From contig CM055278.1 of assembly GCA_029237695.1 (NCBI GenBank), positions 72,593,188-72,657,187 on the forward strand: 64,000 nucleotides of DNA, written 5' to 3'. Positions 42,570-63,910 of this stretch are shown here, piece after piece. Numbering within the stretch: the first letter of the stretch is position 1; every line of letters starts with the position of its first letter. The notes beneath the pieces were generated by a model. That model was not told the DNA's origin and did no database searches. It saw only the letters and a list, made by a program, of their open reading frames with translations. The translations under genes were made by a program, and so were the position numbers. This DNA comes from Conchocele bisecta (Eukaryota; Mollusca; Bivalvia; Lucinida; Thyasiridae).

Positions 42570-42640
42570 CCAATTCACGAATTGGATACACCCACCCCAG
42601 TACAAAGCGCACCAGCAAGTTCCCCCAATTCACGAATTGG
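42570..42640. repeat. Two palindromes CCAATTCACGAATTGG
   Basis: Identical 16-mers at 42570-42585 and 42625-42640, both preceded by CCCC, inside the linker coding sequence. An extended imperfect form is at 42737-42763. Part of a set scattered over the viral block. Confidence 0.85.
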
Positions 42641-42833
42641 AACAGGAGCGGGAACTAGTGTCTCGTCAAGTTCCACCTCCGCTCCAGCTCAGGAACGGCA
42701 TGTTCCAAAAGAACTTGATGCACGATCAAGTTCCCCCAATTCTTCGAATCGCGATGGGATTGGAACAGGAACGGGAAGTACAACACACGAGGAAGAGAAA
42801 TTAGGGCTCGTCGTCGCCCTCGTGGTGATCGTA

Positions 42834-43250
42834 CTACTTGGGCTTTGGTTTTAGGAACTCTCGGGCGGAGAATAGTAGAAGACCTACGATCGCCACGATT
42901 AAAGTATTTTTGGCGAGCCATCCTGCCGTTTTTGATAATATAGATAACAAGTAGGAGACGACACTTCCGATCAACCCAGGCAGAGCGGCACCCACCTTTC
43001 CGGCTAATTTAGCCTCGAGATTGGCGAGGGCATTTAGTAATTTTTTTAACCACTCCTTAACTCCACCGGATGCAGGTGCGGGTGCTGGTGCGGGTGATGG
43101 AGCGGGTGCTGGCGCTGGCGCTGGCGCAGGTGCGGGTGCTGGTGCTGGTGCGGGTGCTGGCGCGGGTGTTGGCGCGGGTGCTGGCGCTGGTGCAGCCGCC
43201 GAACCGCCTACGAGCAGCTCGATAGCTAGAACTATGGTCGATATAGTCAT
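42834..43250 (-). pseudogene. Copy 1: Pro-Ala hinge and amphipathic/TM half of the membrane-associated protein
   Basis: C-terminal half of the gene that starts at 44242: a hydrophobic segment (MTISTIVLAIELLVGG), a long (PAPA)n hinge, GGVKEWLKKLLNALANLEAK leading into an amphipathic/hydrophobic stretch (GAALPGLIGSVVSYLLSIL), then a TM helix and basic tail EFLKPKPK. In copy 2 this is continuous in sequence with the N-terminal half, so the ATG at 43250 is not a true start: a 4-bp indel relative to copy 2 just upstream shifts the frame. Such an amphipathic-plus-TM architecture could disrupt membranes during entry or release; this is inference only. Confidence 0.6.
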
Positions 43251-44299
43251 GCCGAGAGCTGCGAGGATGCTATCGTGACGCCCTGCTCTCTGAACAGAGT
43301 GCGAAGTCGCTCACCGAGTGTCGTCTCCTTGTGCAGAACCCTCGAGATTGTTTCGCGGATCCGACTGATTTGGGTGTTGAGAGCCTCATGGTTAGTCGAG
43401 GCAGCCTCCACGCGAGCTGCTCTTTCATCCCGCAACTTTTGCAGTCGTTCGTTAATCCGCTCGGTAGATTCTCTATCGTCACCGGCTTCCCCAAGTTTTC
43501 TTTCTTCTAGCGCGATATATTCATCCAGCGCCGTGAGTTTGGAGAGGTTATGGACCAATTCACCCAGGACTGTTTGCATAGCCCTATCGAGGCCCCGGAG
43601 TTCGCGAAGAGGTAACGGGGGGTCATCGTTCGACCCTTGGTCGAGGTTGAGTATTCCATCTATTTCGTTTTCGTTGATCTCCATTGTGCGAATCGCGTCG
43701 GTGACTACACGAGGGATCTCGCTGAGCTCGACAGTTTCTATCGCGGCGGCCGTCTTTGCCATCATTTCGTCGGTAGACTGTAGGGTCCTTACAGCGCGGG
43801 CCGGCATAATTGTTTTACCACGCTTCCAATCCGTGAATCCTAGTTCGCTCCTTACAATTTCACCACCACCCCGGGTTCCGGCAATGGTGTTCAGCGATAG
43901 GGGTTTTCCGGTATTCATGTTGATGTTCGGGATATTTGATGCTTTTAGTCGCAACCTACCACGCCGATCCAATTCGAACTTGGAGTAGTCGCGACCGACA
44001 GATGGGACCACACATTTTTCTGCCAAACTTTTGCAGTAGTCGTCTATAGTTGACTTGACTAATTCCTGACTTAGACTAATGGTGTTGGTAGCGCCACCTA
44101 TTTCCCCCAATTCATGAATTGTAGGTTGATTCACTATGAAGGACGTTTCGTCATCGATGTCATTATCGATGGCATCATCGATGGCATCATCGCGAAAATC
44201 GTCTCGGTCGACTTCGTCCATGCCAATATCGTAACCATCCATATTTAACGCTGTATTAAAGAAAAAACCATACGGGTTTAATAGAGTATTTAGTTTCAT
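43247..44299 (-). pseudogene. Copy 1: acidic/coiled-coil half of the membrane-associated protein
   Basis: Preferred start is the ATG at 44242 (MDGYDIGMDEVDRDDF), matching MTDYDIDMDE in copy 2, rather than 44299. An acidic head is followed by a copy-specific domain (about residues 35-150 with RRGRLRLKASNIPNINM and GGGEIVRSELGFTDWKRG), then a conserved region TLQSTDEMMAKTAAAIE, a coiled coil (ESTERINERLQKLRDERAA) and RVLHKETTLGERLRTLFREQ. The 43247 stop comes from a frameshift relative to copy 2. The divergent spacer to the capsid gene (44243-44306) is only 64 bp and probably holds both promoters. Confidence 0.6.
44107..44121. repeat. Palindrome CCAATTCATGAATTG
   Basis: Variant of the CCAATTCACGAATTGG motif, again after CCCC, inside the acidic/coiled-coil gene at the border of its copy-specific domain. 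Confidence 0.8.
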
Positions 44300-44306
44300 C
44301 GAAACT

Positions 44307-45453
44307 ATGTCTTCAAGTCAATATGGCTGCAAACTCAATCCATACCGCCGACTGCGGGAGCCCCTTGGGGCGAAAGGTGTGAGACAGAGCGTCGTTATTA
44401 CGAACAACCCATCGACGATCGACCAGAACCAGCAGCTGTTGGTCCGCTTCCCCAACCTCGGAGCTAGCGACGTCATTATGCCGGGGACTGTTCGCCTCGC
44501 TTTCACTATTTCGCTGACGTCGACAGACGTGGACCGAACCGTCGTTCAGAACCTGGGTCGCGCCATCGTCAAGAAGACCATGATCAAGATTTCTGGTAAT
44601 GAGGTGATGTCGATCGACGACAGCGACGTCTACCATTGTTATCAGGACCTGTGGAAAACAGAGCAAGAGCGCGAAAATGCGGCCTATCAGGGTATTGACA
44701 CCAGCAAAAATAAGAACGTAACCAGACTTAGAATCGGGGCTGGTAACAAGGCAGATAACGACGCGAGCGACAACGCGATCGCGGCCGCTTAAGGCAACCG
44801 CTTCTACATCCCGTTCGACTTCGAGTTGCTGGAGAGTCACATGCCCTACTATCAGAGTGCTTTGGCTGACCGGCTCGAATTGTGAACTATCGTTCAACGA
44901 CTACGGCCGAGTTCTCATAGCCACCGACATGGCATCGACGTATGCGATCGACAATGTTTCGCTGGAGTACGACATGGTCACGATGCCCGAACTCACGCGA
45001 TTGATCAGAACATAGTACTACGGGCGCGTTGCCATACTTTACGACCAAGTTCTTCGCCATCGCAAGATGACGAAAGACAAAAGTGACATATTGTGGAATA
45101 TTAATGTCAACGTACCCGCCCGCTCGATGAAAGGTATACTGATGCTGTTCGATGAGCGTTGGTTCGAGCTCTGGGCTAGAAAAAGCGACAAATTCTATAA
45201 TCCCAAAATCACAAAGGTAGAGGTGACGATCGAGGAAGTTCCCAATCAACTCTACAGCACGGACCTGCAGCTCTCGAACGTCTCCCTCGCGCAGTTCCTG
45301 ACTAGCAAATACGAGTTATGGTTAGACATGCGAGTCAGCGACGACGACCAAATGCACGGTAGTGGACGCCAAGTTGAGAACGCTAGCGAGGGTGTGACGA
45401 TCCAGATAACCAAAGAGGCGGATGGAGATCGGCCATTGAACGTGTATCTATGA
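44307..45453 (+). pseudogene. Copy 1 candidate major capsid protein, broken
   Basis: Frame starts MSSSQYGCKLNPYRRLREPL and runs with VRFPNLGASDVIMPGTV, VQNLGRAIVKKTMIKISGNE and DVYHCYQDLWKTEQEREN. In-frame stops at 44790-44792 and 44883-44885; later frames carry YAIDNVSLEYDMVTMPELT, ILWNINVNVPARSMKGILML and a conserved end at 45453. About 30 residues present in copy 2 are missing near 45270. Full length would be about 420 residues. Placement directly before the packaging ATPase and a beta-rich sequence suggest the double jelly-roll major capsid protein of this lineage; I did not verify the fold. Confidence 0.55.
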
Positions 45454-45473
45454 CGCACAACTCAACATCGAAG

Positions 45474-46171
45474 ATGGTCGATACGTCTCAGCACTCTACT
45501 GGTTTAATAAAAAAATCTTCTAACGATTTATTAATAAATCAATCTAGCGATTTATTAATAAATCAACACCAATTCACGATTGGAGATTTAATTCTACCTT
45601 CAAACTTTAAAGTTTGTGATGCCCACTCTGCCATAATATGTGGGCAGACAGGATGCGGAAAAACAATTTTCATCCTCGACTTGCTCGAGGGGTCCTACCG
45701 CGATATCTTTCGACACATTGTGATCCTGTGTCCCACTGTGCGGCACAACGATACTTATCAGTGGCGCCCATGGATATGGACCGACCCTGAGGTATACGTT
45801 ATTGACCCCGGCGACAGGCTTCACGATTGGCTGCGTGGTTTATACCAAAGATTGCTGGGCGATCCCACCTTGACGACTGCTCGGCCAAGGCGGCGATGAC
45901 CAAAAAGAAGGACATGCTCTCCGAGCTCACATTTTCTGGCCGCCAGGCGGGGCAAAGCGTATGGATCTCCACTCAGAAGTACAACGCCGTCCTCAAGGAT
46001 CTGCGCGAGCAAACGAAATGGGTCGCCCTTTTTCACTGCAAGGACCGAGACTCATTCGATGACTGTCTTCGAGAGGAGCGCCTGCAGGTTAGACAGATGC
46101 TTTCGGAAACTAAGCACGCCAAGCTTCTGCTAAAGACTGATCAACCAACTGCTTACAAAGTTATTAACTAA
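45474..46171 (+). pseudogene. Copy 1 FtsK/HerA-type genome-packaging ATPase, broken
   Basis: Start at 45474 (MVDTSQHS) agrees with copy 2. Walker A is AIICGQTGCGKTIFILDLLE. At about 45870 an 11-bp gap relative to copy 2 removes the Walker B region and shifts the frame; the downstream frame resumes KDMLSELTFSGRQAGQSVWI and QKYNAVLKDLREQTKWVALF, containing the conserved sensor glutamine/arginine regions. A further 24-bp in-frame gap lies near 46076. The N-terminus has 30-40 extra bases holding palindromes that copy 2 lacks. The protein would pump genomic DNA into the capsid. Confidence 0.8.
45525..45616. repeat. Cluster of four palindromes in the ATPase N-terminus
   Basis: GATTTATTAATAAATC at 45525-45540 and again at 45549-45564, CCAATTCACGATTGG at 45569-45583 and CAAACTTTAAAGTTTG at 45601-45616. 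Only the third is present at the homologous place in copy 2. Confidence 0.85.
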
Positions 46172-46273
46172 TTAGTAACTGCTGAGCAAATGCTTAACAA
46201 TGCTGAGCAATTGCTGAACAATGCTGAAGAAATGCTTAACAAATGTTGAACAAATGCTGAACAATGGTTAACC
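46172..46273 (+). repeat. AATGCTGAACA short tandem repeat
   Basis: About nine 10-13-bp units (AATGCTGAGCA, AATGCTTAACA) between the ATPase and the next gene. Copy 2 has a homologous array at 59127-59240, so it is an old component of the element. Confidence 0.8.
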
Positions 46274-47053
46274 ATGTTAACAATTTGGTGCTCCGCTGCG
46301 AGCTTTGTTGCGAGCATAACGGTGATCATAAGTATCGGGTGGTGCGCTTGGCAATATGTTAAAGTTATGAGACTTGTAAGAATAGTTAAATTAATTTTAA
46401 GAAAATTAGCAATAATGAACTGCGACGAAATTCTCGATCAGCTAATGGAAGAAACCTCAACTCCGACTGCCGACACGGCATCTTTCCTGAAAGATAATGA
46501 AAGTTCAACTCCGACAGAGCAATCGGGTTCAACAGTGTTGAGTGCAACACCTGCCGATACGAATGAAAATGCAGCGCGAAGAGAGCGGCTAGCTGCGCTG
46601 GTTGCTGGGGGACAATCGGAGCATTATCTCGGTAGGCGTCTCTCAGTTTATCAGGTGGATAAGATGTCAGATGTAGAGGTTGATCAAATGTATGCCCGAT
46701 ACGAATCTAGGTTAGGTGCGGAGATGACAAAATCTCTTGGATCAGCGGCTATTCATTTGTACGCAACCGCCGTTAGTATACTTCTCCCTATACCAAACAC
46801 CGCGGGATTGATTCGCGATCTAGAGACTGACCCTTTCAGAGGACACACTCTTAGAACAGCCTGCTGCTCAATTTATCACAAGTTTGGAATGTACTTAGCT
46901 CCGCTGACAACCGTGTTTACCACGGGTAAACACTGTCAATTTGGACATATATGCCCACGAACTATAAGCCCTAATATTATAAATGATGACACAAGACGCA
47001 CCTGCGAGAGTGACGGAACCGCAATCCCCGATTGCTGTTCCAACTCCGATTGA
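46274..47053 (+). CDS. Copy 1 conserved membrane protein (259 codons)
   Basis: Opens with a hydrophobic N-terminus (ASFVASITVIISIGWCAW), a basic stretch (VRIVKLILRK), then a Thr/Ser/Pro-rich linker and a conserved body: RRERLAALVAGGQSEHYLGR, DVEVDQMYARYESRLGAEM and LLPIPNTAGLIRDLETDP, ending with FGMYLAPLTTVFTTGKHCQF. An alternative start is the ATG at 46418 (MNCDEILDQL), which would drop the membrane segment. Reading frame intact in both copies. It overlaps the next gene by 71 bp, as in copy 2. Function unknown. Confidence 0.6.
   Translation: MLTIWCSAASFVASITVIISIGWCAWQYVKVMRLVRIVKLILRKLAIMNCDEILDQLMEETSTPTADTASFLKDNESSTPTEQSGSTVLSATPADTNENAARRERLAALVAGGQSEHYLGRRLSVYQVDKMSDVEVDQMYARYESRLGAEMTKSLGSAAIHLYATAVSILLPIPNTAGLIRDLETDPFRGHTLRTACCSIYHKFGMYLAPLTTVFTTGKHCQFGHICPRTISPNIINDDTRRTCESDGTAIPDCCSNSD
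46390..46410. repeat. Palindrome TTAATTTTAAGAAAATTA
   Basis: The same motif recurs near 58996, 59880 and 61272 in copy 2. Here it sits inside the coding sequence, between the membrane segment and MNCDE. Confidence 0.6.
46529..46541. repeat. Palindrome TCAACAGTGTTGA
   Basis: In the Thr/Ser-rich linker. Sister sites are at 47251-47263, 47349-47361 and 62747-62759. Confidence 0.65.
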
Positions 47054-47465
47054 TCCTCCAATTGCACGACACAAAAACCCAAAAAGACAGGCAGCTGGGC
47101 AGACAGCGGCTGCCACCCGAAAAACTAAACAAGATAAAATACTCGCCGAGCTTCGAGAGGCCAAACAGTCGTTGCAATCGGGGATTGAGACACCCAAAAT
47201 ACAATCAGAAGAGCAATCGGGGAGTTCTGTAGCTCCTATCCCCTATTACCTCAACATTGTTGAACCTGATTGGAAAATCATCCTGTTGGGTGTTGGTGGT
47301 GGTCTGGCAGTGTGTGTGTGGAAATACCTTTCGAGACAACCCCCAACCTCAACACTGTTGAACCCGAGCATGTTGGAGGCGGTTCCGAAGAAAGTTACGA
47401 AACACCAATCGCAATTGGATGCGCCCCATTTAAACATTAAAGGCGATCACTTTTATATGCAATAA
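46983..47465 (+). CDS. Copy 1 small basic membrane protein
   Basis: 160 codons: a Pro-rich start, a basic motif KNPKRQAAGQTAAATRK, a coiled segment DKILAELREAKQSLQS, a variable linker and one transmembrane helix (ILLGVGGGLAVCVWKYL). Copy 2 (57935-58414) keeps the basic motif and helix while the linkers differ and are full of palindromes. Likely a virion or membrane-associated protein; family not named. Confidence 0.6.
   Translation: MMTQDAPARVTEPQSPIAVPTPIDPPIARHKNPKRQAAGQTAAATRKTKQDKILAELREAKQSLQSGIETPKIQSEEQSGSSVAPIPYYLNIVEPDWKIILLGVGGGLAVCVWKYLSRQPPTSTLLNPSMLEAVPKKVTKHQSQLDAPHLNIKGDHFYMQ
47021..47035. repeat. Palindrome GCAATCCCCGATTGC
   Basis: In the N-terminal linker; a CAATCGGGGATTG form follows at about 47177. 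Related to the CCAATCGCGATTGG class. Confidence 0.65.
47251..47418. repeat. Palindromes TCAACATTGTTGA, TCAACACTGTTGA, CCAATCGCAATTGG
   Basis: At 47251-47263, 47349-47361 and 47405-47418, flanking the transmembrane helix in the two linkers of the small membrane protein. Confidence 0.75.
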
Positions 47466-47470
47466 ATATA

Positions 47471-47704
47471 ATGGCTGAAAAGAATGGTAAAATGATAGTG
47501 AATGCGCTTTATCACACCGTGGTGATAACGGGTCTCACTGTCGGATATGCTCGACTATCAAAGATGGCCTTCGGAGGGACCTCTCCCAAATTGGATATGA
47601 CCGTGAGAGACGTAGGGTTCGTGACCTTAGATGTAGCGGCCGCAGTTTGGACTCGAGATTATCTAATTAAAGCTGGAATTCTACCTCCTAATATATTGAA
47701 TTAA
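47471..47704 (+). CDS. Copy 1 conserved 77-residue hydrophobic protein
   Basis: MAEKNGKMIVNALYHTVVIT, GLTVGYARLSKMAFGG, then LDMTVRDVGFVTLDVAAAVW and LIKAGILPPNILN. Two moderately hydrophobic segments suggest a small membrane protein. Spacing to its neighbours is 5 bp and 1 bp, as in a compact viral genome. I recall close relatives with the GYARLxKMAxGG and LIKxGIxP signatures in cnidarian genomes. Copy 2 is broken. Confidence 0.6.
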   Translation: MAEKNGKMIVNALYHTVVITGLTVGYARLSKMAFGGTSPKLDMTVRDVGFVTLDVAAAVWTRDYLIKAGILPPNILN

Positions 47705-47705
47705 A

Positions 47706-48157
47706 ATGGCTACTGCCTTAGTAATAGTAGGTGGCGCAATCGTGAGCGCAGTGGCGTTCGGCACTAGCAACTATTTATTCTCGTCAATAGGAAAACACTC
47801 GGACGCGGATGATGAGCGCAAGCGTCACGATTTAGCTGTAGAACAACTCAATAGCGCAAAGGAAGCATGGGCGGAAAAACTAACCGGAAAAACGAAGAGC
47901 TTCGCCGCGAGAGTCACGCCGTGCAAACTTTCCGGAACGTTGACGAAGCCATGCACGAGTACAAGCTGGTATATCCCCAGAAAATTCTCGCGCCGCTGGG
48001 TCCCGAGCCCCAACTTTCAGATTTCTATGTACCGTCAGAGGACCAAAAAGACCGCGAGATCGCGTTCATCGTCGTTGGAATGGGTGTGGTGGGTCTCGTC
48101 AGCTACTATATTGGAAAAGCAATAAGCAATAATTATTTAAAAAAAAATCTTTTTTAA
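47706..48157 (+). pseudogene. Copy 1 conserved ~150-residue protein, one frameshift
   Basis: N-terminal hydrophobic segment (LVIVGGAIVSAVAFGTSNYL), then DDERKRHDLAVEQLNSAKEA. The frame shifts between 47867 and 47890 and continues in the +2 frame with NEELRRESHAVQTFRNVDEA, LGPEPQLSDFYVPSEDQKDR and a C-terminal membrane helix (IAFIVVGMGVVGLVSYYIG). Two membrane segments with a coiled middle. Copy 2 lacks the C-terminal half. Confidence 0.6.
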
Positions 48158-48172
48158 GTAATATATAGAACG

Positions 48173-48496
48173 ATGTTAGTTGACGAGCTTTACTTTGATC
48201 TAATCGATGTAGGCTACAAGGCCCTTAAACACCGTTTAGCTGGCGCAAAGGGTCTGATCCGTCTGGCCCAAGATTCTCTCGAGACGTGGCGCGAGGATGA
48301 AAAAGCGGCCACCCTTTTCGCAAAGCGGATGATAGATTCCTCCGAGTTCCCGCTCCTGTTCCAATCTAATCGCGATTGGACTTCCAACAAAGGTTTAGTA
48401 TCGCCGACGCAGTTACCGGACTATCTGGCGAGGGCATGTTGGAGATTGTCCGATCTATTAGAATACCTCGCATACGATGGACACGCGCAAACTTAA
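48173..48496 (+). CDS. Copy 1 conserved 107-residue protein
   Basis: Intact frame MLVDELYFDLIDVGYKALKH, then LETWREDEKAATLFAKRMID and LEYLAYDGHAQT. Its end overlaps the integrase start by 20 bp; the same 20-bp overlap is kept in copy 2 (56983-57002). Helical, no membrane segment or catalytic motif recognised. It contains a palindrome (48361-48379) in its middle linker. Confidence 0.6.
   Translation: MLVDELYFDLIDVGYKALKHRLAGAKGLIRLAQDSLETWREDEKAATLFAKRMIDSSEFPLLFQSNRDWTSNKGLVSPTQLPDYLARACWRLSDLLEYLAYDGHAQT
48361..48379. repeat. Palindrome CCAATCTAATCGCGATTGG
   Basis: In the middle of the 107-residue gene. The homologous spot in copy 2 is the CAATCGCGATTGG at 57101-57113. Confidence 0.75.
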
Positions 48497-49507
48497 TACC
48501 AAACTATCGGTTCGCCTAACGCGCAAGCTAGCGAACACATACTACAGCCCCCGCGGCTACTGGAAGGGACTCACGGCCATCAAGAACCTCGCGGCGGCGA
48601 CCAAGGGTTCCGAAAACGCAGCCAATGAATGGCTCAAGAAGCAGGCCATCTGGCAGATCTATTTGCCCGCGCCTCACAATATTCCGCGCCCGAAATTCGA
48701 CGTGCCGGTGCCGAACGAAGTCCACCAAGCAGACCTCCTATTTCTCCCTCACGATCGCGTCGGTCGCAAGACATACAAGCACGCACTGACAATCGTTGAC
48801 ATAGCGAGTCGGTATAAGGGGGCTGAGCCGTTGGCCACTAAAGAGTCTAAGGAAGTGGCCGAGGCTCTTTCCCGAATATATAAAAGGAGTCCTCTCAAAT
48901 GGCCGAATCTTCTCCAGGTCGATCCCGGCCGCGAGTTCATGGGCGCGGTCTCTCATCTATTGTCTAAACACAAAGTTTCTGTCAGACGCGGCCGCGTCAA
49001 CATCCACCGGGACCAGGGGATCGTGGAGCGGTTCAATCGAACTCTTGCTGAGAGGTTGTTCTGACACCAATATGCCAAAGAGCTTGTAGATCCTCATTCG
49101 CGATCGACCGAGTGGGTGAGCAGGCTGCCCGCGTGGTCTCCGCACTGAACGGCGAGGTGACCAGATTGATCGGTAAGAAGCCCGTAGATGCCATCAAGGC
49201 GAAAACGGTGGCGCACAAACCATCCGCCGTCTCGCGCGTGCGCCCCATTGGTTTAGCGGAGAAACGACTTCCATCGGATGTTGCCGTCCGGTACCTATAT
49301 CAACCGGGAGAGCTCTAAGGTGGACGGCGCCGCACTACTGATCCCGTGTGGTCTCTCAATGTATATCATCTAGATCGATCTATTACCAAACCCAATGAGC
49401 CCGTGTTCTACTATTTGGATGGTGGTCCATCGCGCTGGTTTGTTCGGAAAGAACTTCTTGCGGTGCCTTCTGACACCCAGCTGTCTCCGGTCCGTCCGTC
49501 GTTATAG
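48477..49507 (+). pseudogene. Copy 1 retroviral-type (rve) integrase, broken
   Basis: Starts MDTRKLNTKLSVRLTRKLAN. A helical N-terminal region (WLKKQAIWQIYLP) is followed by a DDE catalytic core: D86 in EVHQADLLFL, D149 in LLQVDPGREFMG, E184 in GIVERFNRT, giving the D-D-35-E spacing. A TGA at 49062-49064 truncates the first frame after residue 195; another frame covers VVSALNGEVTRLIGKKPVDA, a TAA lies at 49316-49318, and the C-terminal chromo/SH3-like part (DPVWSLNVYHLDRSITKP) runs to the TAG at 49505-49507. It would insert the element into host DNA. Confidence 0.85.
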
Positions 49508-49569
49508 TCGGTCAGGCTCTCATCAGAGCCTTTAGTATTCTCCCCTTTTTTAGAGTTCTTTTTTTTTGT

Positions 49570-51417: not shown

Positions 51418-51620
51418 GGAGCCCGTTTCACTAAACGCCGTACGACTAAAATGTTCGTAAGTGTAAATTTAAGATCGTCTGTAAATTTCAATTGATGGAT
51501 TTACATTTACTGAGCATAGGCTGCATATGCAGCCTATGCTCAATAAATGTAAATCCAATAATTGTTTACAAGAAAACATTGTTAATGTGAAATTTACAGA
51601 CTATCATAATTTTGCACTTA
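51417..51620. mobile_element. Foldback element GAGCCCGTTTCACTAAAC family, copy 2
   Basis: Left end GGAGCCCGTTTCACTAAACG and inner palindrome GCATATGCAGCCTATGCTCA as at 9028-9250. Its right end is cut after TTTGCACTTACG by the next palindrome. Confidence 0.75.
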
Positions 51621-51740: not shown

Positions 51741-51764
51741 ACCATATATTTATGACATGAGAAA

Positions 51765-52205
51765 ATACACCCTATTAGAGATAAGAATCCCTATGTTATA
51801 CTCAGTATATATATACAACAATATGTCATACTTTTATTACGAATAAAATAACAACTGACACCCTATTAAAGATAAGAAATCCATAAGTTATACTCAGTAT
51901 TTTACAGCAATCTGTCACAAATATAAACTGACACCCTATTAAAGACAAGTTATCCATAAATTATTACAACAATCTGTCGTACTTTATTACGAATAAAATA
52001 TAAACTGACACCCTATTAAAGATAAGAAATCTATAAGTTATACTCAGTATTTTACACCAATCTGTCACAAATTATAAACTGACACCCTATTAAAGACAAG
52101 TTATCCATAAGTTATACTAATATATTACAACAATCTGTCATATATTTATTACGAATAAATATAAACTTACACCCTATTGAAGATAAAATTATATTGGTTA
52201 TACTC
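51765..52205 (+). repeat. Tandem array of 73-90-bp units upstream of the polymerase
   Basis: Six units start CACCCTATTAAAGA(T/C)AAG at about 51768, 51860, 51933, 52009, 52083 and 52170. Two subtypes alternate (one with GTTATACTCAGTATTTTACA, the other with ACAACAATCTGTC...TTATTACGAAT), so the true period is a dimer of about 150 bp. The last unit runs directly into the polymerase ATG. May be the terminal/subterminal repeat or origin of copy 2. Confidence 0.8.
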
Positions 52206-52211
52206 AGTATA

Positions 52212-55945: not shown

Positions 55946-55973
55946 GTAAAAAAAAGAAAAAACTGAGAGAATA

Positions 55974-57002: not shown

Positions 57003-57338
57003 CGTATGCGATGTATTCTAATATATCGGACAATCTCCAACGTGCCCTCGCCAGATCGTCCGGTAACTGCGTCGATAATAATAAACCTTTTTTGGAAGTA
57101 CAATCGCGATTGGGGGTTAAGTTCTGAAGGAACTTGGGAAAATCTAATCCCCCAGGATTGGTGGAGGAATCTAACATCCGCTTTGCGAAAAGGGTGGCCG
57201 CTTTTTCGTCCTCCCCCCGCCACGTCTCGAGAGAACTCTCGGGCCAAGACGAATCATACCCTTTGCACCAGCTATGCGGTGTTTAAGGGCAGTATAGCCT
57301 ACATCAATCATAGCAAAATAAAGTTCGTCAACTGACAT
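56983..57338 (-). pseudogene. Copy 2 homologue of the 107-residue protein, frameshifted
   Basis: ATG at 57338 (MSVDELYFAMIDVGYTALKH). The frame shifts near 57245 and ends YIAYDEHAKT at 56983, overlapping the integrase start by 20 bp as in copy 1. Confidence 0.6.
57101..57113. repeat. Palindrome CAATCGCGATTGG
   Basis: At the position corresponding to 48361-48379 in copy 1, in the middle linker of the 107-residue gene. Confidence 0.7.
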
Positions 57339-57378
57339 CGTTCTATATATATTTATATATTAAAATATTAATGTTAGT

Positions 57379-57657
57379 TTATAATATTAATTCGCGGTTG
57401 GCTTCTTCAACGTTCTGAAAAGTTTGTGCGGCGTGATTTTCACGGCGAAGCTCTTCATTGACCCAGTCCAGATGGGCGGTTCGTTTTTTCGACCTCGCTT
57501 CCTTTGCGCTATTGAGTTGTTCTACAGCTAAATCGTGACGCTTACGCTCGTCCTCATCCACGTTCGAGCTTTTCATTTTAGAGAATATAAAGTTGCTACC
57601 GCTGAACGCCAATGCGTTTACACGTGCACCACCTACCATTAATGCGATTGAAGCCAT
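57379..57657 (-). pseudogene. Copy 2 homologue of the ~150-residue protein, C-terminus missing
   Basis: MASIALMVGGARVNALAFSG, then DEDERKRHDLAVEQLNSAKE and NEELRRENHAAQTFQNVEEA in one unbroken frame of 92 codons. The conserved FYVPSEDQ block and second membrane helix of copy 1 are deleted. Confidence 0.6.
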
Positions 57658-57670
57658 TTATTTCCATATA

Positions 57671-57897
57671 TTAACTGGTGAGAATTCCAGCTTTAACTAG
57701 ATAATCTCGGGTCCAAACTGCGGCCGCTACATCTAAGGTCGCGAGCCATACGTCTCTCACAGTAAAGTCCAATTTGGGAGCGGAACCCTACCTTAGGGGG
57801 CCATCTTTGATAGTCGAGCATACCCGATACTGAAACCCAATATCACCACGGCGTGATAAAGCGCATTCACTAACATTTTACCATCTTGTTCAGCCAT
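57671..57897 (-). pseudogene. Copy 2 homologue of the 77-residue hydrophobic protein, broken
   Basis: ATG at 57897 (MAEQDGKMLVNALYHAVV), GYARLSKMA, then a stop and frame changes. The end near 57671 keeps sequence similar to copy 1. Too degraded to encode a product. Confidence 0.5.
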
Positions 57898-57934
57898 TAT
57901 AATTATTGCATATAAAAAGGGTCGCGATCAATGT

Positions 57935-58414
57935 TTAAATGGGGCGCATCCAATCGCGATTGGTGTTTCGTAACTTTCTTCTGAACACTGGCTGGTTGTT
58001 TTTTCGATAATAGGGGTATTTCCACACGCACAGGGCACCAACAACTGCCAGACCACCACCAACAACCCAACTCCAATTCACGAATTTGGGTTCAATCGGA
58101 TTCGCCCAACCTCGATTGGGTGTTGAGTGTGCTTCCAATTCGTGAATTGGGGGTGTTGTTGTACTCAACTCTGTCTTCAGATGTTTTGCTGTCTCCGTCC
58201 CCGATTGCAACGACTGTTTAGCCTCTCGAAGCTCGGCGAGTATTTTATCTTGTTTATCTTTTCGGGTGGCAGCCGCCGCCAGCCCAGCTGCCTGTCTTTT
58301 GGGATTTTTTATATGCGGTATGTCATCCAGTGGCGGAGTAACACTCGGGTTCGATTGGGTTGGAGCAATCGGGTTCAACTCCGTCACTCTCGCGGGTGTG
58401 TCTTGTGTCATCAT
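57935..58414 (-). CDS. Copy 2 small basic membrane protein
   Basis: 159 intact codons: MMTQDTPARVTELNPIAP, the basic motif HIKNPKRQAAGLAAAATRKD, DKILAELREAKQSLQSG and a transmembrane helix WSWVVGGGLAVVGALCVWKY. The linkers around the helix are built from palindromes at 57950, 58073, 58106 and 58135. Start overlaps the upstream gene by about 92 bp. Confidence 0.6.
   Translation of the reverse strand: MMTQDTPARVTELNPIAPTQSNPSVTPPLDDIPHIKNPKRQAAGLAAAATRKDKQDKILAELREAKQSLQSGTETAKHLKTELSTTTPPIHELEAHSTPNRGWANPIEPKFVNWSWVVGGGLAVVGALCVWKYPYYRKNNQPVFRRKLRNTNRDWMRPI
57950..57963. repeat. Palindrome CCAATCGCGATTGG
   Basis: Perfect 14-mer in the C-terminal linker, homologous in place to CCAATCGCAATTGG at 47405-47418. 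Confidence 0.8.
58073..58150. repeat. Three palindromes of the CCAAT...ATTGG class
   Basis: CCAATTCACGAATTTGG (58073-58089), CCAACCTCGATTGG (about 58106-58119) and CCAATTCGTGAATTGG (58135-58150). At the corresponding linker copy 1 has TCAACATTGTTGA-type palindromes instead. Confidence 0.8.
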
Positions 58415-59126
58415 TTATGATATTAATATTAGGGCTTATAGTTCGTGGGCATATATGTCCAAATTGACAGTGTTTACCCGTGGTCAACGCGGTTGTCAGC
58501 GGAGCTAAGTACATTCCAAACTTGTGATAAATTGAGCAGCAGGCTGTTCTAAGAGTGTGACCTATAAAAGGGTCAGTCTCTAGATCGTCAATCAATCCCG
58601 CGGTGTTTGGTATAGGGAGAAGTATACTAACGGCGGTTGCGTACAAATGAATAGCCGCCGATCCGAGAGTTTTTGTCATCTCCGCACCTAACCTAGATTC
58701 GTATCGCGCATACATTTTATCGATCTCCGCATCTGACATCTTATCCACCTGAAAAACTGAGAGACGCCTACCGAGATAATGCTCCGATTGTCCCCCAGCA
58801 ACCAGCGCAGCTAGCCGCTCTCGTCGCGCCGCATTTTCATTTCCATTCGGAGTCGTTGCACTCAACCCAATACCAACCGCCGTTGGAGTTGGAGTTGATT
58901 CCGATTGCTCTGTCGGATCATTATCTTTCAGGGTGTTGGCAGTCGGAGTTGAGGTTTCTTCCACTAGCTGATTGAGAAGTTCGTCGCAGTTCATTTTTCT
59001 TAAAATTAATTTAACTATTCTAACCACTCTCATCACTTTAATATATTGCCAAGCGCACCACCCGATACTTATGATCACCATTATGCTCGCAACAAAGCTC
59101 GCAGCGGAGCACCAAATTGTTAACAT
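58323..59126 (-). CDS. Copy 2 conserved membrane protein (267 codons)
   Basis: Intact homologue of 46274-47053: N-terminal membrane segment ASFVASIMVIISIGWCAW, alternative inner start MNCDELLNQL, a Thr/Pro-rich linker, then RRERLAALVAGGQSEHYLGR and YARYESRLGAEMTKTLGSAA. Both copies have kept this frame open while neighbours decayed, but with no expression evidence this may be chance. Confidence 0.6.
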   Translation of the reverse strand: MLTIWCSAASFVASIMVIISIGWCAWQYIKVMRVVRIVKLILRKMNCDELLNQLVEETSTPTANTLKDNDPTEQSESTPTPTAVGIGLSATTPNGNENAARRERLAALVAGGQSEHYLGRRLSVFQVDKMSDAEIDKMYARYESRLGAEMTKTLGSAAIHLYATAVSILLPIPNTAGLIDDLETDPFIGHTLRTACCSIYHKFGMYLAPLTTALTTGKHCQFGHICPRTISPNINIINDDTRHTRESDGVEPDCSNPIEPECYSATG

Positions 59127-59240
59127 TGTTAACCATTGTTCAGCATTTGTTCAACATTTGTTAAGCATTTGTTCAGCATTGTTCAGCATTGTTCAGCATT
59201 GTTCAGTAATTACTAATTTACTCGGCAATTACTAACGAGC
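59127..59240 (-). repeat. TGTTCAGCATT short tandem repeat
   Basis: Reverse-complement equivalent of 46172-46273, between the ATPase and the membrane-protein gene. Confidence 0.8.
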
Positions 59241-59256
59241 GTTAAGTAATTGCTAA

Positions 59257-59931
59257 TTATAAAATTAATTGATTAACTTCGTAAGCAGTTGGTTGATCAA
59301 TCTCTAGCAAAAGCTTGGCGTGCTTAGTTTCCGAAAGCATCTGTCGAACCTCCAGGCCCTCCTCGCGCGTTGGGATAACGTCATTCTCTCGAAGGCAGTC
59401 ATCGAATGAGTCTCGTTCCTTGCAGTGAAAGAGGGCCACCCATTTCGTTTGCTCGCGCAGATCCTTGAGGACGGCGTTGTACTTTTGAGTGGATATCCAT
59501 ACGCTTTGCCTAGCATGGCGGCCAGAAAATGCGAGCTCGGAGAGCATGTCCTTCTTTTTGGTCATCGCCGCCTTGGCTGAGCAATCGTCAATCACGTATA
59601 AGGTGGGCTCACCCTGGACTCTTTGGTATAAACCACGCAGCCAATCGTGAAGCCTATCACCGGGGCCAATAACGTATACCTCAGGGTCGGTCCGTATCCA
59701 CGGGCGCCGCTGATAAGAATCGTTGTGTCACACAGTGGGACACAGGATCACAATGTGACGAAAGGCATCGCGGTAGGAGCCCTCGAGCAAGTCTAGGATG
59801 AAAACCGTTTTTCCACATCCTGTCTGCCCACATATTATGGCAGAGTGGGCATCTCCAATCGTGAATTGGTATTGATTGCTAATTTTCTTAAAATTAATTA
59901 AATCAGTAGAGTGCTGAGACGTATCGACCAT
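59257..59931 (-). pseudogene. Copy 2 FtsK/HerA-type packaging ATPase, one stop
   Basis: One continuous frame from MVDTSQHS at 59931 with a single TGA at 59728-59730. Walker A is AIICGQTGCGKTVFILDLLE; Walker B (LYVIDDCSAK) is present here, unlike copy 1; then KDMLSELAFSGRHARQSVWI and KWVALFHCKERDSFDDCLRE. The least damaged core gene of the block and the best template for family assignment. Confidence 0.85.
59854..59868. repeat. Palindrome CCAATCGTGAATTGG
   Basis: In the ATPase N-terminus, homologous to 45569-45583. The other three palindromes of copy 1 are absent here, while a TTAATTTTAAG..AAAATTA type lies at about 59878-59897. Confidence 0.75.
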
Positions 59932-59958
59932 CTTCGATGTTGAGTTGTGCGTCTGTAA

Positions 59959-61227
59959 TTATATATAGTACACGTTCAATGGCCCGGCTCCGTCCGCCTC
60001 TTTGGTTATCTGGATCGTCACACCCTCGCTAGCGTTCTCAACTTGGCGTCCGCTGCCGTGTATTTGGTCGTCGTCGCTGGCTCGCATGTCTAGCCATAAC
60101 GCGTATTTGGTATTCAGGATCTCCGCGAGGGAGACGGCCGAGAGATGCAGGTCTTTGGCAACCGCTGCAACCTCCGGAGAGCGCTTAGAGCCGGCAGCAA
60201 ACTGCTTTCTTACTTCGTCCCACTGCTGGTGCGCGCGAAGACCCGCGCTGTAGAGTTGATTGGGTACTCCCTCGATCGTCACCTCTACCTCGTGATTTTG
60301 GGGTTATAGAATTTGTCGGTTTTTCTAGCACCGAACGCGAACCGAGCATCCTCGAACAACATCAGTATACCTTTCATCGAGCGGGCGGGTACGTTGACAT
60401 TAATATTCCACAATGTGTCGCCTTTGTCTTGTCGTCATCTTGCGATGGCGAAGAACTCGGTCGTAAAGTATGGCAACAGCCCGGCGTACTGGGTTCTGAT
60501 CAATCGCGCGTGTTCCGGGCATTCGTGACCCCATGTCCGTACCCCTAGCGAAACATTATCGAATCGTATAGTCGATAACATGTCGCTGGCTATGAAAGAA
60601 CTCGGCCGTAGTCGTTGAAACGTTAGTTTACGTTTTATTCGAGGCGGTCAGCCAAAGCGCTCTGGATAGTAGGGGGCCATGTGGACTCTCCGGCAACTCA
60701 AAGTTCGACGTGGGATGTAGAAGCGGTTGCCGTAAAGCGTCCCGCTGACCGCATTGTCACTCGCGTTGTTAGCTCTACCTTGTTAGCAGCCCCGATTCCG
60801 TAAGTTTGGTTACGTTCTTAATTTTGCTGGTGTCAATACCCTGATAGACAGCGTTTTCGCGCTCTTGCGCCGTCATCCATAGGTCCTGATAACAATGGTA
60901 GACGTCGCTGTCATTGATCGACATCACCTCATTACCAGAAATAGTTATCATGGTCTTCTTGACTATGGCGCGACCCAGGTTCTGAACGACGGTTCGGTCC
61001 TCGTCCGTTCGACGGTCGCGAAAATAGTGAAAGCGGAAGCGAACAGTCCCCGGCTCAATGACGTCGTTAGCTCCGAGGTTGGGGAAGCGGACCAAGAGCT
61101 GCTGGTTCTGGTCGATCGTCGATGGGTTGTTGGTAATAACGACACTCTGTCTCACGCCTTTTGCCCCGAGGGGCTCACGCAGTCTGCGGTATGGATTGAG
61201 TTTGCGACCGTATTGACTCGAAGACAT
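59959..61227 (-). pseudogene. Copy 2 candidate major capsid protein, broken
   Basis: Starts MSSSQYGRKLNPYRRLREPL at 61227; blocks VRFPNLGANDVIEPGTV, VQNLGRAIVKKTMITISGNE and DVYHCYQDLWMTAQERENAV. The first frame ends at 60775; several frame changes follow, and the last frame (60282-59959) has SAVSLAEILNTKYALWLDMR and EGVTIQITKEADGAGPLNVY. It includes about 30 residues (HQQWDEVRKQFAAGSKRSPE region) missing from copy 1. The end is 27 bp from the ATPase start. Confidence 0.55.
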
Positions 61228-61300
61228 AATTTAGTGAAACTATATTAAACCCGTATGGTTTTGTCTTTAATACATAGTTAATTTTAAGAAAATTATAAAT
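61228..61300. promoter_or_regulatory. Divergent intergenic region (capsid / acidic-membrane gene)
   Basis: Only 73 bp separate two divergent starts (64 bp in copy 1 at 44243-44306), so any promoters must be here or inside the genes. It carries the TTAATTTTAAGAAAATTA palindrome. Confidence 0.4.
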
Positions 61301-62669
61301 ATGACTGATTACGATATTGACATGGATGAAATCGGCAGAGACGATTTCCACGATGATGATGACATCGATGATGACATCGATAACTATGACGAAACGACCT
61401 TCATAGGGACGCCAGCAGACGCACCAGGAACTTCATCTGCTGGTGTCCCTATGTGGGAGGCCCCACCCGAAACTCCGGCATGGGCGTGGGGTGACGAGAT
61501 TCCTGCGGGGATCTCCAAGGATGAGCTGGCGCCTCTCAAGGAAACGGATTCTCTGGTGAAACGGTGGGAGAGTGAGGTGTCTAAACACGGCATCAATGCC
61601 ACGTTGGAATTCCGCAGCACTAAAAGAGGAGACCTGTGGGTTAAATGGGGCAAGAGCTGGAAGTTGCTGACGTACCAGAACGACCCGACCCGGTTCCTCG
61701 CCCCCTCTTCCTTGAACCGATATGGAGTATCCCTCGCTCGAGCTCTCGGAGTGATCGATGATCGGTCGCAGCTGCCTCAACAAATTGTAAAAACCCTACA
61801 GTCTACCGACGAAACGCTGGCGAAGACGGCCGTCGCAATAGAAATGAGCGAGCTCAGCGATGTCCCTCGTATAGCCACCGACGCTATTAACACAGTGGAA
61901 ACTACGGTCAACGAAATGAACGGCACGAAATATGACCCACCATTACCTCTTCGCGAACTCCTGGACTCGATAAGGCTCTGCAAACAACTCGGGGAGGGGC
62001 GAACTGGTCAATAACCTCTCCAAACTCACGGCGCTGGACAAACATATCGCGCTAGAAGAAAGAAAACGTGGGGAAGTCCGTGACGATAGAGAATCTACCG
62101 ATCGGATCAACAAACTCCTGCGGTCGTTGCGGGACGAAAGAGAGCTCGCTTGGAGGCTGCTTCGACTAAACCGTGAGGCACTTTCCGGCCAATTAAGTCG
62201 GAGCCGCGAAACAATCTCGAGGGTTCTGCACGAGGACACGACACTCGGTGAGCGTCTTAGCACTCTGTTCAGAGAGAAGGGCGTCACGATAGTAACCATC
62301 ATCGCAGCTTTCAGCATGATTATATCGACCCTAATTATATCTATATCGTCTCTATTTGTAGCTGTCAATGCTGGTGCCGCACCAGCACCCGCACCAGCAC
62401 CAGCACCCGTACCAGCACCCGCGCCATCCGGCGGAGCCAAGGAGTGGATAAAAAAACAACTAAAAGCCCTCGCCAGTATCCTGGCTAAATTAGCAGGAAA
62501 GTTGACTGCCGCACTGCCTGGTTTGATAGGAGGTCTCCTCTCCTGCTTGTTATCTATATTATCAAAAACGGTCGGATGGCCCGCCGAGAATACCTGGGCT
62601 TTAATCGTGGCCATCGCCGGTCTCCTACTATTCTTCGCCAGACAGTTCCTAAAACCAAAGCGTAAATAG
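61301..62669 (+). pseudogene. Copy 2 acidic, Pro-Ala-hinged membrane-associated protein, one frameshift
   Basis: MTDYDIDMDEIGRDDFHDDD, then a copy-specific domain (LWVKWGKSWKLLTYQND, LNRYGVSLARALGV), then KTLQSTDETLAKTAVAIEMS. The frame shifts near 61985 and continues in the frame of RVLHEDTTLGERLSTLFREK, VTIVTIIAAFSMIISTLIIS, an AAPAPAPAPAPVPAPAP hinge, KEWIKKQLKALASILAKLAG, LPGLIGGLLSCLLSIL and the TM ALIVAIAGLLLFFARQFLKP. About 450 residues overall. It shows that the two copy 1 frames (42834-43250, 43247-44299) are one gene. Ends in a 21-bp convergent overlap with the next gene. Confidence 0.65.
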
Positions 62670-63910
62670 TCCGATCGCCACGAGGGCGACGACGAGCGCT
62701 AATTTCTCCTCCTCGTGTGTTGTGCTTCCAATCTCGATTGGTGTTTCAACATTGTTGATGATTGGATTGGGGGAACTCGATGGTGCATCCAATTTACGAA
62801 TTGGGGGTGGGTTACTGGGTTGATTTGTGTTGAGGGAGTGTTATCCATTTTTGTTGTTTTGGGGGTTTTTTATTGGAAATTCGGTTTCCCAATTTTGTGT
62901 TTCGGGGGTTTAAAAAATCGGTTCCACTTACAACACTGTTGAACACGATCATGTTGGGGGTGCGCTTGATGATATCCACGTTCACGTTACCGTTGTGGCC
63001 GATTTTTTGATTGGCGGTGGCGATTACGATCTGATTATTGTAACCGTCAACCGGGTCGTCTCGTAGTATCATATTGCTCGGCGCCATATAAAGACCTATT
63101 CCAAATACATAGTCTACTGGAGTGCTGGCATTCTGTAAAACGTCTTGATAATTCTGGATCGCCTTCTCCAGATCAACCCTAGCAGAGATGGCGTCCTCTA
63201 CAAGTGCCAAGAATTGTTTTTGTGCATCAAACGCTGTTTCCGTGCCCAGTATAGAACTGCGAGTTTGCTTCTGTGCGCCAAGGATGGCCCAGACATGTGC
63301 GAATGGAGTCGTTCCGACTGACGATGTGGTCACCGGAGTGATCGTGTCTAAAATCAGTCTGCGTCCAATTCCCGGACTGGCCCCGAATGAGAACGTCGCC
63401 GAGGCCGGTGCTGGTAGGAAATGCTTTCTGTCTCCAGTCCGCGTCTTTTGAAACGTTAAATTCGTTACTCAGTCTTTCAAACGCCATACGGTCGTATGCG
63501 TTGGAAATGGGATCCCAGGCGTCGTCTTAAGGTAGTGTACCTAGTTCTTTCAGAATCCTCCTAATAGTATAATACGCATGAAAGTTGTAAACACTTCGGA
63601 GCATGACATTCTTGGATGTCAGATGGTCTTTATGTGAAACTCCACACCCGGCTGTTGCGCACCATACAGCGAAATTTATTTGGTTCTGCCAAAACTGCAT
63701 CGGTGTGGCTTTCCACCCGTTTACCGCCTCCATCGTATTAATCTTGGGCAACCTATATTGTTCAAAGATGTCGGGGAAGTTGGTGGCAAAGCCACTGTCC
63801 GGTCTAACCGTTACGGTTGGGTATACAAGGTTAACAACGTCTTTTTGCTTGTATTTACCTCCGACCGCGTACTTTGCATTATAATTAAAGCTAAATGCTT
63901 TGGTATCCAT
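62649..63910 (-). pseudogene. Copy 2 large conserved protein with C-terminal TM, broken
   Basis: MDTKAFSFNYNAKYAVGGKY at 63910; NQINFAVWCATAGCGVSHKD and VYNFHAYYTIRRILKELGTL before a stop at 63527-63529. The frame continues AFERLSNEFNV, shifts near 63300 to AHVWAILGAQKQTRSSILG, then YQDVLQNASTPVDYVFGIGL and GYNNQIVIA. The low-complexity tail is disrupted by stops but the membrane anchor ALVVALVAIGLFTLWF ends at 62649. Its N-terminal 55 residues have no match in copy 1. Confidence 0.6.
62728..62804. repeat. Palindromes CCAATCTCGATTGG, TCAACATTGTTGA, CCAATTTACGAATTGG
   Basis: At 62728-62741, 62747-62759 and 62789-62804, in the low-complexity tail of the large conserved gene; a further partial TCAACA type is at 62930-62944. 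Copy 1's corresponding tail has two CCAATTCACGAATTGG instead. Confidence 0.8.

What the first reader, a model, noticed from the sequence alone, without database searches (positions are those of the whole stretch)
42570..62944. Dispersed short palindromes peppering the viral genes, different in the two copies
At least 15 sites of 13-17 bp (CCAATTCACGAATTGG, CCAATCGCGATTGG, TCAACA-N-TGTTGA, GATTTATTAATAAATC, CAAACTTTAAAGTTTG, TTAATTTTAAGAAAATTA) fall in low-complexity linkers and at gene ends of both copies, not in the catalytic cores. Some sites are shared (45569/59854; 47405/57950; 48361/57101); others are private, for example three extra ones in the copy 1 ATPase N-terminus. This looks like a family of tiny palindromic insertions tolerated by linkers, or a selected recognition signal (packaging, transcription end, recombination). 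I know of no described system matching it.
Basis: partly seen in the sequence, partly recalled or inferred. Interest (0 to 1): 0.82.

Follow-up and report, generated by a model that had tools for sequence, protein, structure and literature searches.

The report
Shuffled coding palindromes in viral linkers
A virus-like transposon present in thousands of copies in an animal genome carries small DNA palindromes in the floppy linkers of several of its proteins, and the same palindromes turn up in different genes, orientations and often reading frames, which suggests that DNA pieces rather than peptides are being copied around.

Summary
The window holds two inverted copies of a Polinton/Maverick-like element in a 1.89-Gb genome that carries 4,944 exact copies of a 17-mer from its ATPase core (control 1). 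Across up to 89 copies, five linkers hold 8-17 palindromes per kb (arms >=6) against 0.5-3.3 in shuffles; the two longer cores are near background at that setting. Synonymous resampling does not reproduce this. Three of four families are read in more than one frame. TCAACANTGTTGA occurs 7,152 times (control 121), CCAATTCACGAATTGG 5,437 times (control 0). 19 of 20 sampled TCAACANTGTTGA sites lie in the element.

Close copies differ by in-frame gains or swaps of palindromic modules. Tracts of 18-37 bp are shared between non-homologous linkers in both orientations and mostly overlap a palindrome. No general target-site duplication was found. Best reading: short-tract copying by template switching or patch repair in the live element, filtered for frame; the mechanism is inferred, and a selected hairpin is not excluded. 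Closest kinds: Rickettsia palindromic elements, yeast mitochondrial GC clusters, nematomorph coding palindromes.

The parts
42226..49500 (+). copy 1 of the Polinton/Maverick-like element (part that pairs with copy 2)
   Evidence: inverted repeat arms, 75-96% complementary among the 25 longest of 43 pairs; A32-like ATPase and weak capsid and integrase Pfam matches
55985..63195 (-). copy 2 of the same element, inverted
   Evidence: alignments A1-A5
42570..42585 (+). CCAATTCACGAATTGG, read as PIHEL
42625..42640 (+). second CCAATTCACGAATTGG in the same ORF, read in another frame (PNSRIG)
44107..44122 (.). CCAATTCATGAATTGT variant in a different ORF (43247-44317, minus strand)
45497..45617 (+). linker E: N-terminal linker of the ATPase
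   Evidence: 145 palindromes vs 28.8 expected in 82 unique alleles; coordinates
45525..45540 (+). GATTTATTAATAAATC (DLLINQ unit 1)
   Evidence: 0, 1 or 2 units per linker in 39, 43 and 7 of 89 copies
45549..45564 (+). GATTTATTAATAAATC (DLLINQ unit 2)
45569..45583 (+). CCAATTCACGATTGG, imperfect palindrome shared with copy 2
45601..45616 (+). CAAACTTTAAAGTTTG, coincides with five extra residues (NFKVC) relative to foreign relatives
46392..46408 (+). TAATTTTAAGAAAATTA, also at 59880-59896 and 61279-61295
46430..46584 (+). linker A of ORF 46274-47053
   Evidence: 94 palindromes vs 6.8 expected in 73 unique alleles; coordinates
46480..46495 (+). ATCTTTCCTGAAAGAT
46529..46541 (+). TCAACAGTGTTGA, present, absent or replaced by a nested palindrome in other copies
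46997..47081 (+). linker B of ORF 46983-47465
   Evidence: 83 palindromes vs 4.6 expected in 71 unique alleles; coordinates
47021..47035 (+). GCAATCCCCGATTGC
47180..47297 (+). linker C of ORF 46983-47465
   Evidence: 95 palindromes vs 9.6 expected in 55 unique alleles; coordinates
47251..47263 (+). TCAACATTGTTGA read in a second frame (LNIVE)
47328..47389 (+). linker D of ORF 46983-47465
   Evidence: 10 palindromes vs 0.6 expected in 16 unique alleles; coordinates
47349..47361 (+). TCAACACTGTTGA; one copy (L053) has its centre replaced by a CCAATCGAGATTGG tract also found in linker B
47405..47418 (+). CCAATCGCAATTGG (pairs with 57950-57963 in copy 2)
48366..48379 (+). CTAATCGCGATTGG in ORF 48158-48496 (pairs with 57100-57113)
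40749..40762 (.). CCAATCGCGATTGA in ORF 40491-40832 (minus strand)
57950..57963 (.). CCAATCGCGATTGG in copy 2
58135..58150 (-). CCAATTCACGAATTGG in copy 2 linker C
62728..62804 (-). three palindromes in a row (CCAATCTCGATTGG, TCAACATTGTTGA, CCAATTTACGAATTGG, as on the + strand) in copy 2

Best explanation
Shown: this Polinton lineage carries a set of short coding palindromes (about 12-18 bp, several families) in linkers; in the window they fall in seven ORFs. The palindromes sit inside larger tracts (18-37 bp) that recur in different linkers, directly and inverted. Length differences between copies mostly keep the reading frame, so they arose mainly while the element was alive. Inferred: the copying is done by template switching or ectopic patch repair during replication of the element. 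A palindrome is its own reverse complement, so a strand end that stops in one can anneal to any other copy in either direction and then copy a little of the flank. Linkers tolerate the product if it is in frame, and cores purge it. The units therefore behave like very small selfish or mutational modules without an enzyme of their own.
For: Density in linkers versus cores, shuffles and mirror repeats. Failure of both synonymous-codon nulls in A-C and E, and in D on small numbers. The same DNA in different frames in three of four families: PIHEL/PQFTNW/PNSRIG, STLLN/LNIVE, PNRDW/PIAIG. Genome-wide 7,152 vs 121 and 5,437 vs 0 in controls, with 19 of 20 sampled TCAACANTGTTGA sites in the element. 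Modal frame in 63 of 74, 59 of 73, 50 of 58, 18 of 25, 87 of 89 copies. Clean in-frame differences between copies with 96-97% identical cores. Shared 18-mers between linkers A-D: 80 direct and 292 inverted (both strands counted); 80% and 84% have >=6 bases in a palindrome versus 31% of unshared 18-mers; merged tracts run well past the palindrome, for example 32 bp inverted A-B. No 18-mer shared among cores except an AT-rich palindrome tract of the K1 segment. No flanking direct repeats in three of four families beyond swapped controls.
Against: No replication experiment, and no ancestral direction for most events. Inverted sharing is partly built in, because a palindrome matches its own complement; only the flanks count. 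The GCAATC family is read in one frame only in all 31 occurrences, as peptide constraint would predict. Cores are above shuffles at arms >=7 (17, 24, 2 vs 6.2, 6.8, 0.4). The core tree is poorly resolved (59 of 70 inner branches open), so repeated gain cannot be told from recombination between copies. Changes at palindrome centres were not supported as a rule: outer-arm test 5, 2, 5, 2 vs 6.3, 1.7, 3.2, 3.3; breakpoint test 45 vs 31.6 (P 0.011, 470 overlapping events) in A-D but 24 vs 38.4 in E. The GCAATC family shows some flanking direct repeats (0.051 vs 0.009 of 59 contexts), as does the L031/L081 gain (9 bp). Depletion of shared variants in stems could mean selection instead.
Confidence: 0.5

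Rival explanations
1. Selected signal: the hairpins are kept because they act in the element (packaging, transcription end, recombination, or binding of a dimeric protein), and modules spread because extra sites are favoured.
For: At 9 of 10 sites examined the commonest haplotype is a palindrome and departures are mostly rare (the exception is B1, where another allele is commoner). Variants shared by >=2 copies are rare in stems, 3 of 278 columns vs 42 of 1,009, while singleton columns are equal, 44 of 278 vs 159 of 1,009.
Against: Mask-shift control P 0.07 over all linkers and 0.24 for A-D alone. Sites are present, absent or replaced among copies. Unrelated sequences (AT-rich DLLINQ and NFKVC units versus CAAY...RTTG units) would need one reader. 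No relative outside this genome could be read at DNA level; seven protein relatives of ORF 46274-47053 contain none of seven module peptides.
Confidence: 0.22
2. Enzyme-driven micro-element, like a very small MITE or Rickettsia palindromic element, inserted by a transposase or structure-specific nuclease of the element or host.
For: Discrete in-frame gains; 34, 12, 21 and 23 flank clusters for four families (clusters may overcount diverged homologous sites); both orientations; the L031/L081 gain shows a 9-bp direct repeat.
Against: No flanking direct repeats beyond swapped controls in three of four families; the fourth has 5%. Inserts vary in length and often replace a tract. Shared tracts extend beyond the palindrome by different amounts.
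Confidence: 0.15
3. Local quasi-palindrome correction or fold-back synthesis at each site, without dispersal.
For: Nested palindromes and centre replacements occur (L053 in D and E, L057 and L086 in B); template switching between inverted repeats in coding DNA is reported in yeast (PMC8604942, abstract read).
Against: Does not give identical palindromes and 18-37-bp tracts in different genes.
Confidence: 0.08
4. Composition, codon usage or protein sequence explains the palindromes.
For: Host DNA of the window also exceeds dinucleotide shuffles. Linker E is AT-rich and its nulls are high (33 and 63 vs 130). The GCAATC family keeps one frame.
Against: mirror-repeat control low in the linkers.
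Confidence: 0.02

Closest known systems
Rickettsia palindromic elements (RPEs)
   Same: palindromic DNA in many unrelated genes, often in frame, adding a peptide to the protein
   Different: about 150 bp, each coding a conserved peptide (PMC10969869, passages read); here 12-18 bp cores in 18-37-bp tracts, several frames, in a eukaryotic virus-like transposon
Palindromic GC clusters (GC42) of yeast mitochondrial DNA
   Same: short mobile hairpins, merger and shuffling of palindromic units, stems more constrained than loops (PMC4478555, passages read)
   Different: 42 nt, GC-rich, in mitochondrial DNA, and discussed there with AG target-site nucleotides; here nuclear, coding, mostly triplet-preserving, no general target duplication
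Coding palindromes in mitochondrial genes of Nematomorpha
   Same: perfect inverted repeats inside protein-coding genes, gains and losses, template switching proposed (PMC6649704, abstract and passages read)
   Different: up to 284 bp, in conserved coding regions, not described in those passages as moving between genes; here tiny, in linkers, dispersed
[quoted passage not shown]
   Same: dyad-symmetric coding repeats shuffled within genomes and in some taxa associated with mobile elements (PMC2996958, abstract and first part of section 6 read)
   Different: tandem 25-residue units with a conserved amphipathic pattern; here the peptide is not conserved
Template switching between inverted repeats in yeast coding DNA
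   Same: changes in coding DNA driven by inverted repeats (PMC8604942, abstract read)
   Different: local arm homogenisation and spacer inversion, not transfer between genes

Membership tests
Polinton/Maverick (adintovirus-like) element | retroviral-type integrase and A32/FtsK-type packaging ATPase | tested here: met
   PF04665 23.5 bits above its cut-off 22.8; PF00665 E 9e-7 but 29.5 bits below cut-off 32.6; 429 ATPase relatives
Polinton/Maverick (adintovirus-like) element | capsid protein and family B polymerase | tested here: inconclusive
   PF16903 21.4 vs cut-off 24; PF03175 15.3 vs 25.8 (E 0.0092, no stretch passing alone); both below cut-off
Polinton/Maverick (adintovirus-like) element | terminal inverted repeats and 6-bp target duplication (recalled) | not tested
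   element ends not mapped
Rickettsia palindromic element | about 150 bp with a conserved peptide | tested here: not met
   units 12-18 bp; three of four families read in two or three frames
Rickettsia palindromic element | dispersed in frame in unrelated genes | tested here: met
   seven ORFs of the window, by coordinates; modal-frame lengths
Mitochondrial GC cluster / double-hairpin element | short mobile hairpin in organellar DNA | tested here: not met
   lies at 72.6 Mb of a contig of a 1.89-Gb genome
MITE or transposon insertion | target-site duplication | tested here: not met
   direct repeats >=4 nt flanking: 0.011, 0.000, 0.000, 0.051 vs swapped 0.012, 0.000, 0.020, 0.009 in 94, 20, 32 and 59 contexts; the last family is a partial exception
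PARCEL | tandem 25-residue amphipathic motif | not tested
   no profile was run; linker peptides seen show no tandem 25-residue unit by eye
Nematomorph-type coding palindromes | long perfect repeats in conserved coding regions | tested here: not met
   linker units short; cores much poorer in palindromes
Template-switch product | inverted copies templated by nearby or homologous inverted repeat | tested here: inconclusive
   inverted sharing between linkers is abundant, but centre-located breakpoints are not general

The most novel reading that the evidence does not exclude
An animal Polinton lineage has a linker-shuffling system in which short palindromes serve as orientation-free docking sites: tracts of coding DNA are exchanged between the stalks and linkers of several virion and membrane proteins, diversifying them, with no dedicated transposase and with the hairpins themselves maintained as the currency.
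Probability: 0.25. Interest if true: 0.82.

Novelty: new variant of a known kind. Interest (0 to 1): 0.66.

Why it matters
Dispersed palindromes in or near genes are known from Rickettsia and from organelles; the passages I read on yeast clusters and nematomorphs leave the mechanism open. Here they occur in a nuclear virus-like transposon with thousands of copies per genome, so gains, swaps and inversions can be read allele by allele. That makes the question of how very short palindromes spread, and whether hairpins are selected or simply self-copying, directly testable. It also suggests a route by which viral linkers diversify through DNA-level copying that often ignores reading frame. My literature searches (open-licence PMC papers only, listings seen) listed no description of this in Polintons.

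Tried and rejected
Protein constraint or codon usage: rejected as the whole cause. Transposon-type insertion with target duplication: not supported. Insertion preferentially at palindrome centres: attractive examples exist (L095, L105, L106, L109 around TCAACAATGTTGA or TCAACATTGTTGA inside CCAAT...ATTGG-like arms; L053), but two tests did not support it as a rule. Selection on stems: Fisher P 0.0095 weakened to 0.07 by a mask-shift control. Event counting on a tree: core tree too poorly resolved (59 of 70 inner branches open; minimum changes 21, 28, 24, 10; no shuffled control was printed). DNA-level relatives elsewhere: none confirmed in viral contigs or genome contigs, and none in the phage collection. 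The third protein search (ORF 46983-47465) gave no relatives at E <= 0.001. A genome-wide loop-variant count (CCAATCNNGATTGG) was asked and a search with a relative protein; none was answered.

Rows dropped before counts: only copies with both anchors of a linker were scored (A 74, B 73, C 58, D 25, E 89; pool was 94 loci L001-L094 plus copy 2; from then on it was 114 loci plus copy 2, which adds one B and three D stretches). L002 and L003 overlap and are one copy counted twice in B copy counts, once among alleles. Identical alleles were counted once. In one search only modal-length, stop-free alleles were used (50, 53, 46, 18, 79). In one search, 35 of 120 relatives had no alignable LP or no Walker A match. 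The 150 ATPase hits are the best-scored of 9,461 candidates, and I fetched 90 of those 150 (30 as loci, copy 1 of the window among them, 60 as stretches). One search used only linker classes with at least six copies of one length, and columns of linker E recur in four classes.

Full report
What is there. The window (G000:C14:72593188-72657187 of a 1.89-Gb, 1,196-contig genome) contains two inverted copies of a Polinton/Maverick-like element; the 25 longest of 43 matching blocks are 75-96% alike. Copy 1 lies on the + strand from about 42.2 to 49.5 kb, copy 2 on the - strand from about 63.2 to 56.0 kb. Pfam matches are weak but co-located: A32-type ATPase (23.5 bits, cut-off 22.8), rve integrase (29.5, cut-off 32.6), Capsid_N (21.4, cut-off 24) and DNA_pol_B_2 (15.3, cut-off 25.8). 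The ATPase has 429 relatives at E <= 1e-5, of which 120 were listed; four of those carry a source name from Candidatus Thiodiazotropha MAGs. That these symbionts live in lucinid bivalves is recalled, so a bivalve host is inference. A 17-base word from the conserved ATPase core occurs exactly 4,944 times in the genome, against 1 for the reversed word, so the element is present in thousands of copies.

The palindromes in the window. Several are families found at non-homologous places: CCAATTCACGAATTGG at 42570, 42625 and 58135 with variants at 44107 and 62789; CCAATCGCGATTGG-like at 40749, 47405, 48366, 57100, 57950 and 62728; TCAACANTGTTGA at 46529, 47251, 47349 and 62746; TAATTTTAAGAAAATTA at 46392, 59880 and 61279. 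By coordinates they fall in seven ORFs on the copy 1 side. A plain count over the block is not decisive, because host DNA of the same window also exceeds dinucleotide shuffles. In the two host stretches mirror repeats are at least as common as palindromes (61 vs 60; 66 vs 34). In copy 1 palindromes outnumber them (23 vs 7); in copy 2 they do not (15 vs 17).

Tests on many copies. I used 90 copies of the ATPase neighbourhood from the same genome (30, copy 1 among them, and 60) plus copy 2 and the four loci, and defined five linkers A-E by conserved anchors. Palindromes (arms >=6, loop <=3) number 94, 83, 95, 10 and 145 in the unique alleles of A-E, against 6.8, 4.6, 9.6, 0.6 and 28.8 in dinucleotide shuffles and 3, 7, 2, 1 and 13 mirror repeats. 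Three conserved cores hold 35, 27 and 11 against 25.0, 25.0 and 3.0. At arms >=7 the cores too are above shuffles (17, 24 and 2 against 6.2, 6.8 and 0.4), while linkers hold 40, 33, 56, 0 and 125 against 1.4, 1.4, 1.4, 0.2 and 6.6. So the cores are much poorer in palindromes, not free of them. Resampling synonymous codons gives 8.5, 6.0, 6.3, 0.85 and 33.3 against 66, 61, 71, 6 and 130 observed; permuting synonymous codons within each linker gives 14.3, 12.3, 16.8, 0.6 and 63.2. Copies share ancestry, so these counts are not independent; the cores of the same copies are the control for that.

DNA more than peptide. In three of four families the same palindrome is read in different frames: CCAATTCACGAATTGG as PIHELE (first site of linker C, and 42570), PQFTNW (second site of C) and PNSRIG (42625); TCAACANTGTTGA as STLLNP, STVLSA and the like (A, B, C, D) and as LNIVEP (C); CCAATCG[C/A]GATTGG as PNRDW (B, D) and PIAIG (A, C), once HQSRLE (B). 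The fourth family, GCAATC(CCC/GGG)GATTGC, keeps one frame in all 31 occurrences in A, B and C, which speaks for some peptide constraint there. In the ATPase, of 120 foreign relatives 85 have an alignable LP motif, and 84 of these have exactly three residues between LP and the H-S-A before the Walker A motif. Copies here have eight (LPSNFKVCDAHSA), five more, or 15 nt, coinciding with CAAACTTTAAAGTTTG. It is present (<=4 mismatches) in 79 of 89 copies; six (copy 2, L090-L094) lack it outright and four (L053, L084, L085, L088) have it altered. Seven protein relatives of ORF 46274-47053 have a linker at the same place and contain none of STLL, STVL, PIHEL, NRDW, LNIVE, PIAIG or FKVC.

Spread. Genome-wide, TCAACANTGTTGA occurs 7,152 times against 121 for the reversed control and CCAATTCACGAATTGG 5,437 times against 0. 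Of 20 TCAACANTGTTGA sites taken from the first 5 Mb of contig C1, 19 lie in the element and one does not. Distinct 18-mers are shared between non-homologous linkers: direct A-C 40, B-D 30, B-C 10; inverted A-B 111, B-C 41, A-C 12, A-D 7, C-D 4. Merged tracts reach 37 bp (direct A-C) and 32 bp (inverted A-B). Cores share none with each other or with linkers, except an AT-rich palindromic tract in the K1 segment (with linker E, and with itself inverted). Of shared 18-mers, 80% (direct) and 84% (inverted) have >=6 bases in a palindrome, against 31% of unshared ones; 32% and 39% have fewer than 10. Part of the inverted sharing is built in, since a palindrome matches its own complement; the evidence is in the flanks.

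Gain, loss and swapping. Linker lengths keep the modal frame in 63 of 74, 59 of 73, 50 of 58, 18 of 25 and 87 of 89 copies, so most changes happened in living elements. Pairs with similar cores differ by discrete tracts: L015/L077 by 15 bp (GCAATCCCCGATTGC; four mismatches elsewhere), L031/L081 by 24 bp (one mismatch), L045/L047 by 21 bp placed between a GCAATC-like and a CCCGATTGC half (five mismatches). In linker D, 13 of 18 frame-keeping copies read STLLNP, while L053 has the centre of TCAACACTGTTGA replaced by a tract with CCAATCGAGATTGG; the enclosing 33-bp tract also occurs in linker B. Many changes look like replaced tracts rather than insertions. Flanking direct repeats of >=4 nt are no commoner than with swapped flanks in three of four families; the fourth has 5.1% against 0.9%.

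Mechanism. I favour copying of short tracts during element replication, with palindromes as docking sites that work in either orientation. This explains inverted and direct sharing, dispersal, frame changes at the DNA level and frame filtering at the protein level. It is an inference. Two tests of a sharper prediction, changes at palindrome centres, did not support it as a rule (5, 2, 5 and 2 observed against 6.3, 1.7, 3.2 and 3.3; 45 against 31.6 in A-D, 24 against 38.4 in E). A selected hairpin is the main rival: at 9 of 10 sites the commonest haplotype is a palindrome, and variants shared by two or more copies are rarer in stems (3 of 278 columns) than elsewhere (42 of 1,009) while singleton columns are equal (44 of 278, 159 of 1,009), though a stricter control gives only 0.07, and 0.24 for A-D alone.

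Comparison. RPEs (PMC10969869, passages), yeast mitochondrial GC clusters (PMC4478555, passages), nematomorph coding palindromes (PMC6649704, abstract and passages), PARCELs (PMC2996958, abstract and first part of section 6) and template switching in yeast genes (PMC8604942, abstract) each share some features, but as far as those texts go none matches size, place, frame behaviour and dispersal together. My searches (listings and abstract openings only) listed no report of such palindromes in Polintons. I rate it a new variant of a known kind.

Noticed in passing
window 51511-51542: Perfect 32-bp palindrome TGAGCATAGGCTGCATATGCAGCCTATGCTCA in the stretch between the two copies, about twice as long as the linker palindromes.
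   Followed up: no
window 51833-52159: TTTATTACGAATAAA three times at about 150-bp spacing with similar flanks, just upstream of the PolB ORFs.
   Followed up: no
window 46190-46290 and 59110-59205: Runs of short imperfect repeats of the type CAAATGCTGAACAATGCTGA upstream of ORF 46274-47053 in both copies.
   Followed up: no
window 42400-42530: Repeated STPKTxGVK units in ORF 42390-42854 that copy 2 lacks in clear form.
   Followed up: no
window 21089-21588: A run of 500 N in host DNA.
   Followed up: no
G000 whole genome: Very large Polinton expansion: 4,944 exact copies of one ATPase core word and 9,461 first-look ATPase candidates; many of the 150 scored hits have no stop inside the match.
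   Followed up: partly
window 43050-43200 and 62300-62450: Alanine-proline (APAPAP) tract in ORF 42834-43310 and its copy 2 counterpart, a different kind of low-complexity stretch.
   Followed up: no
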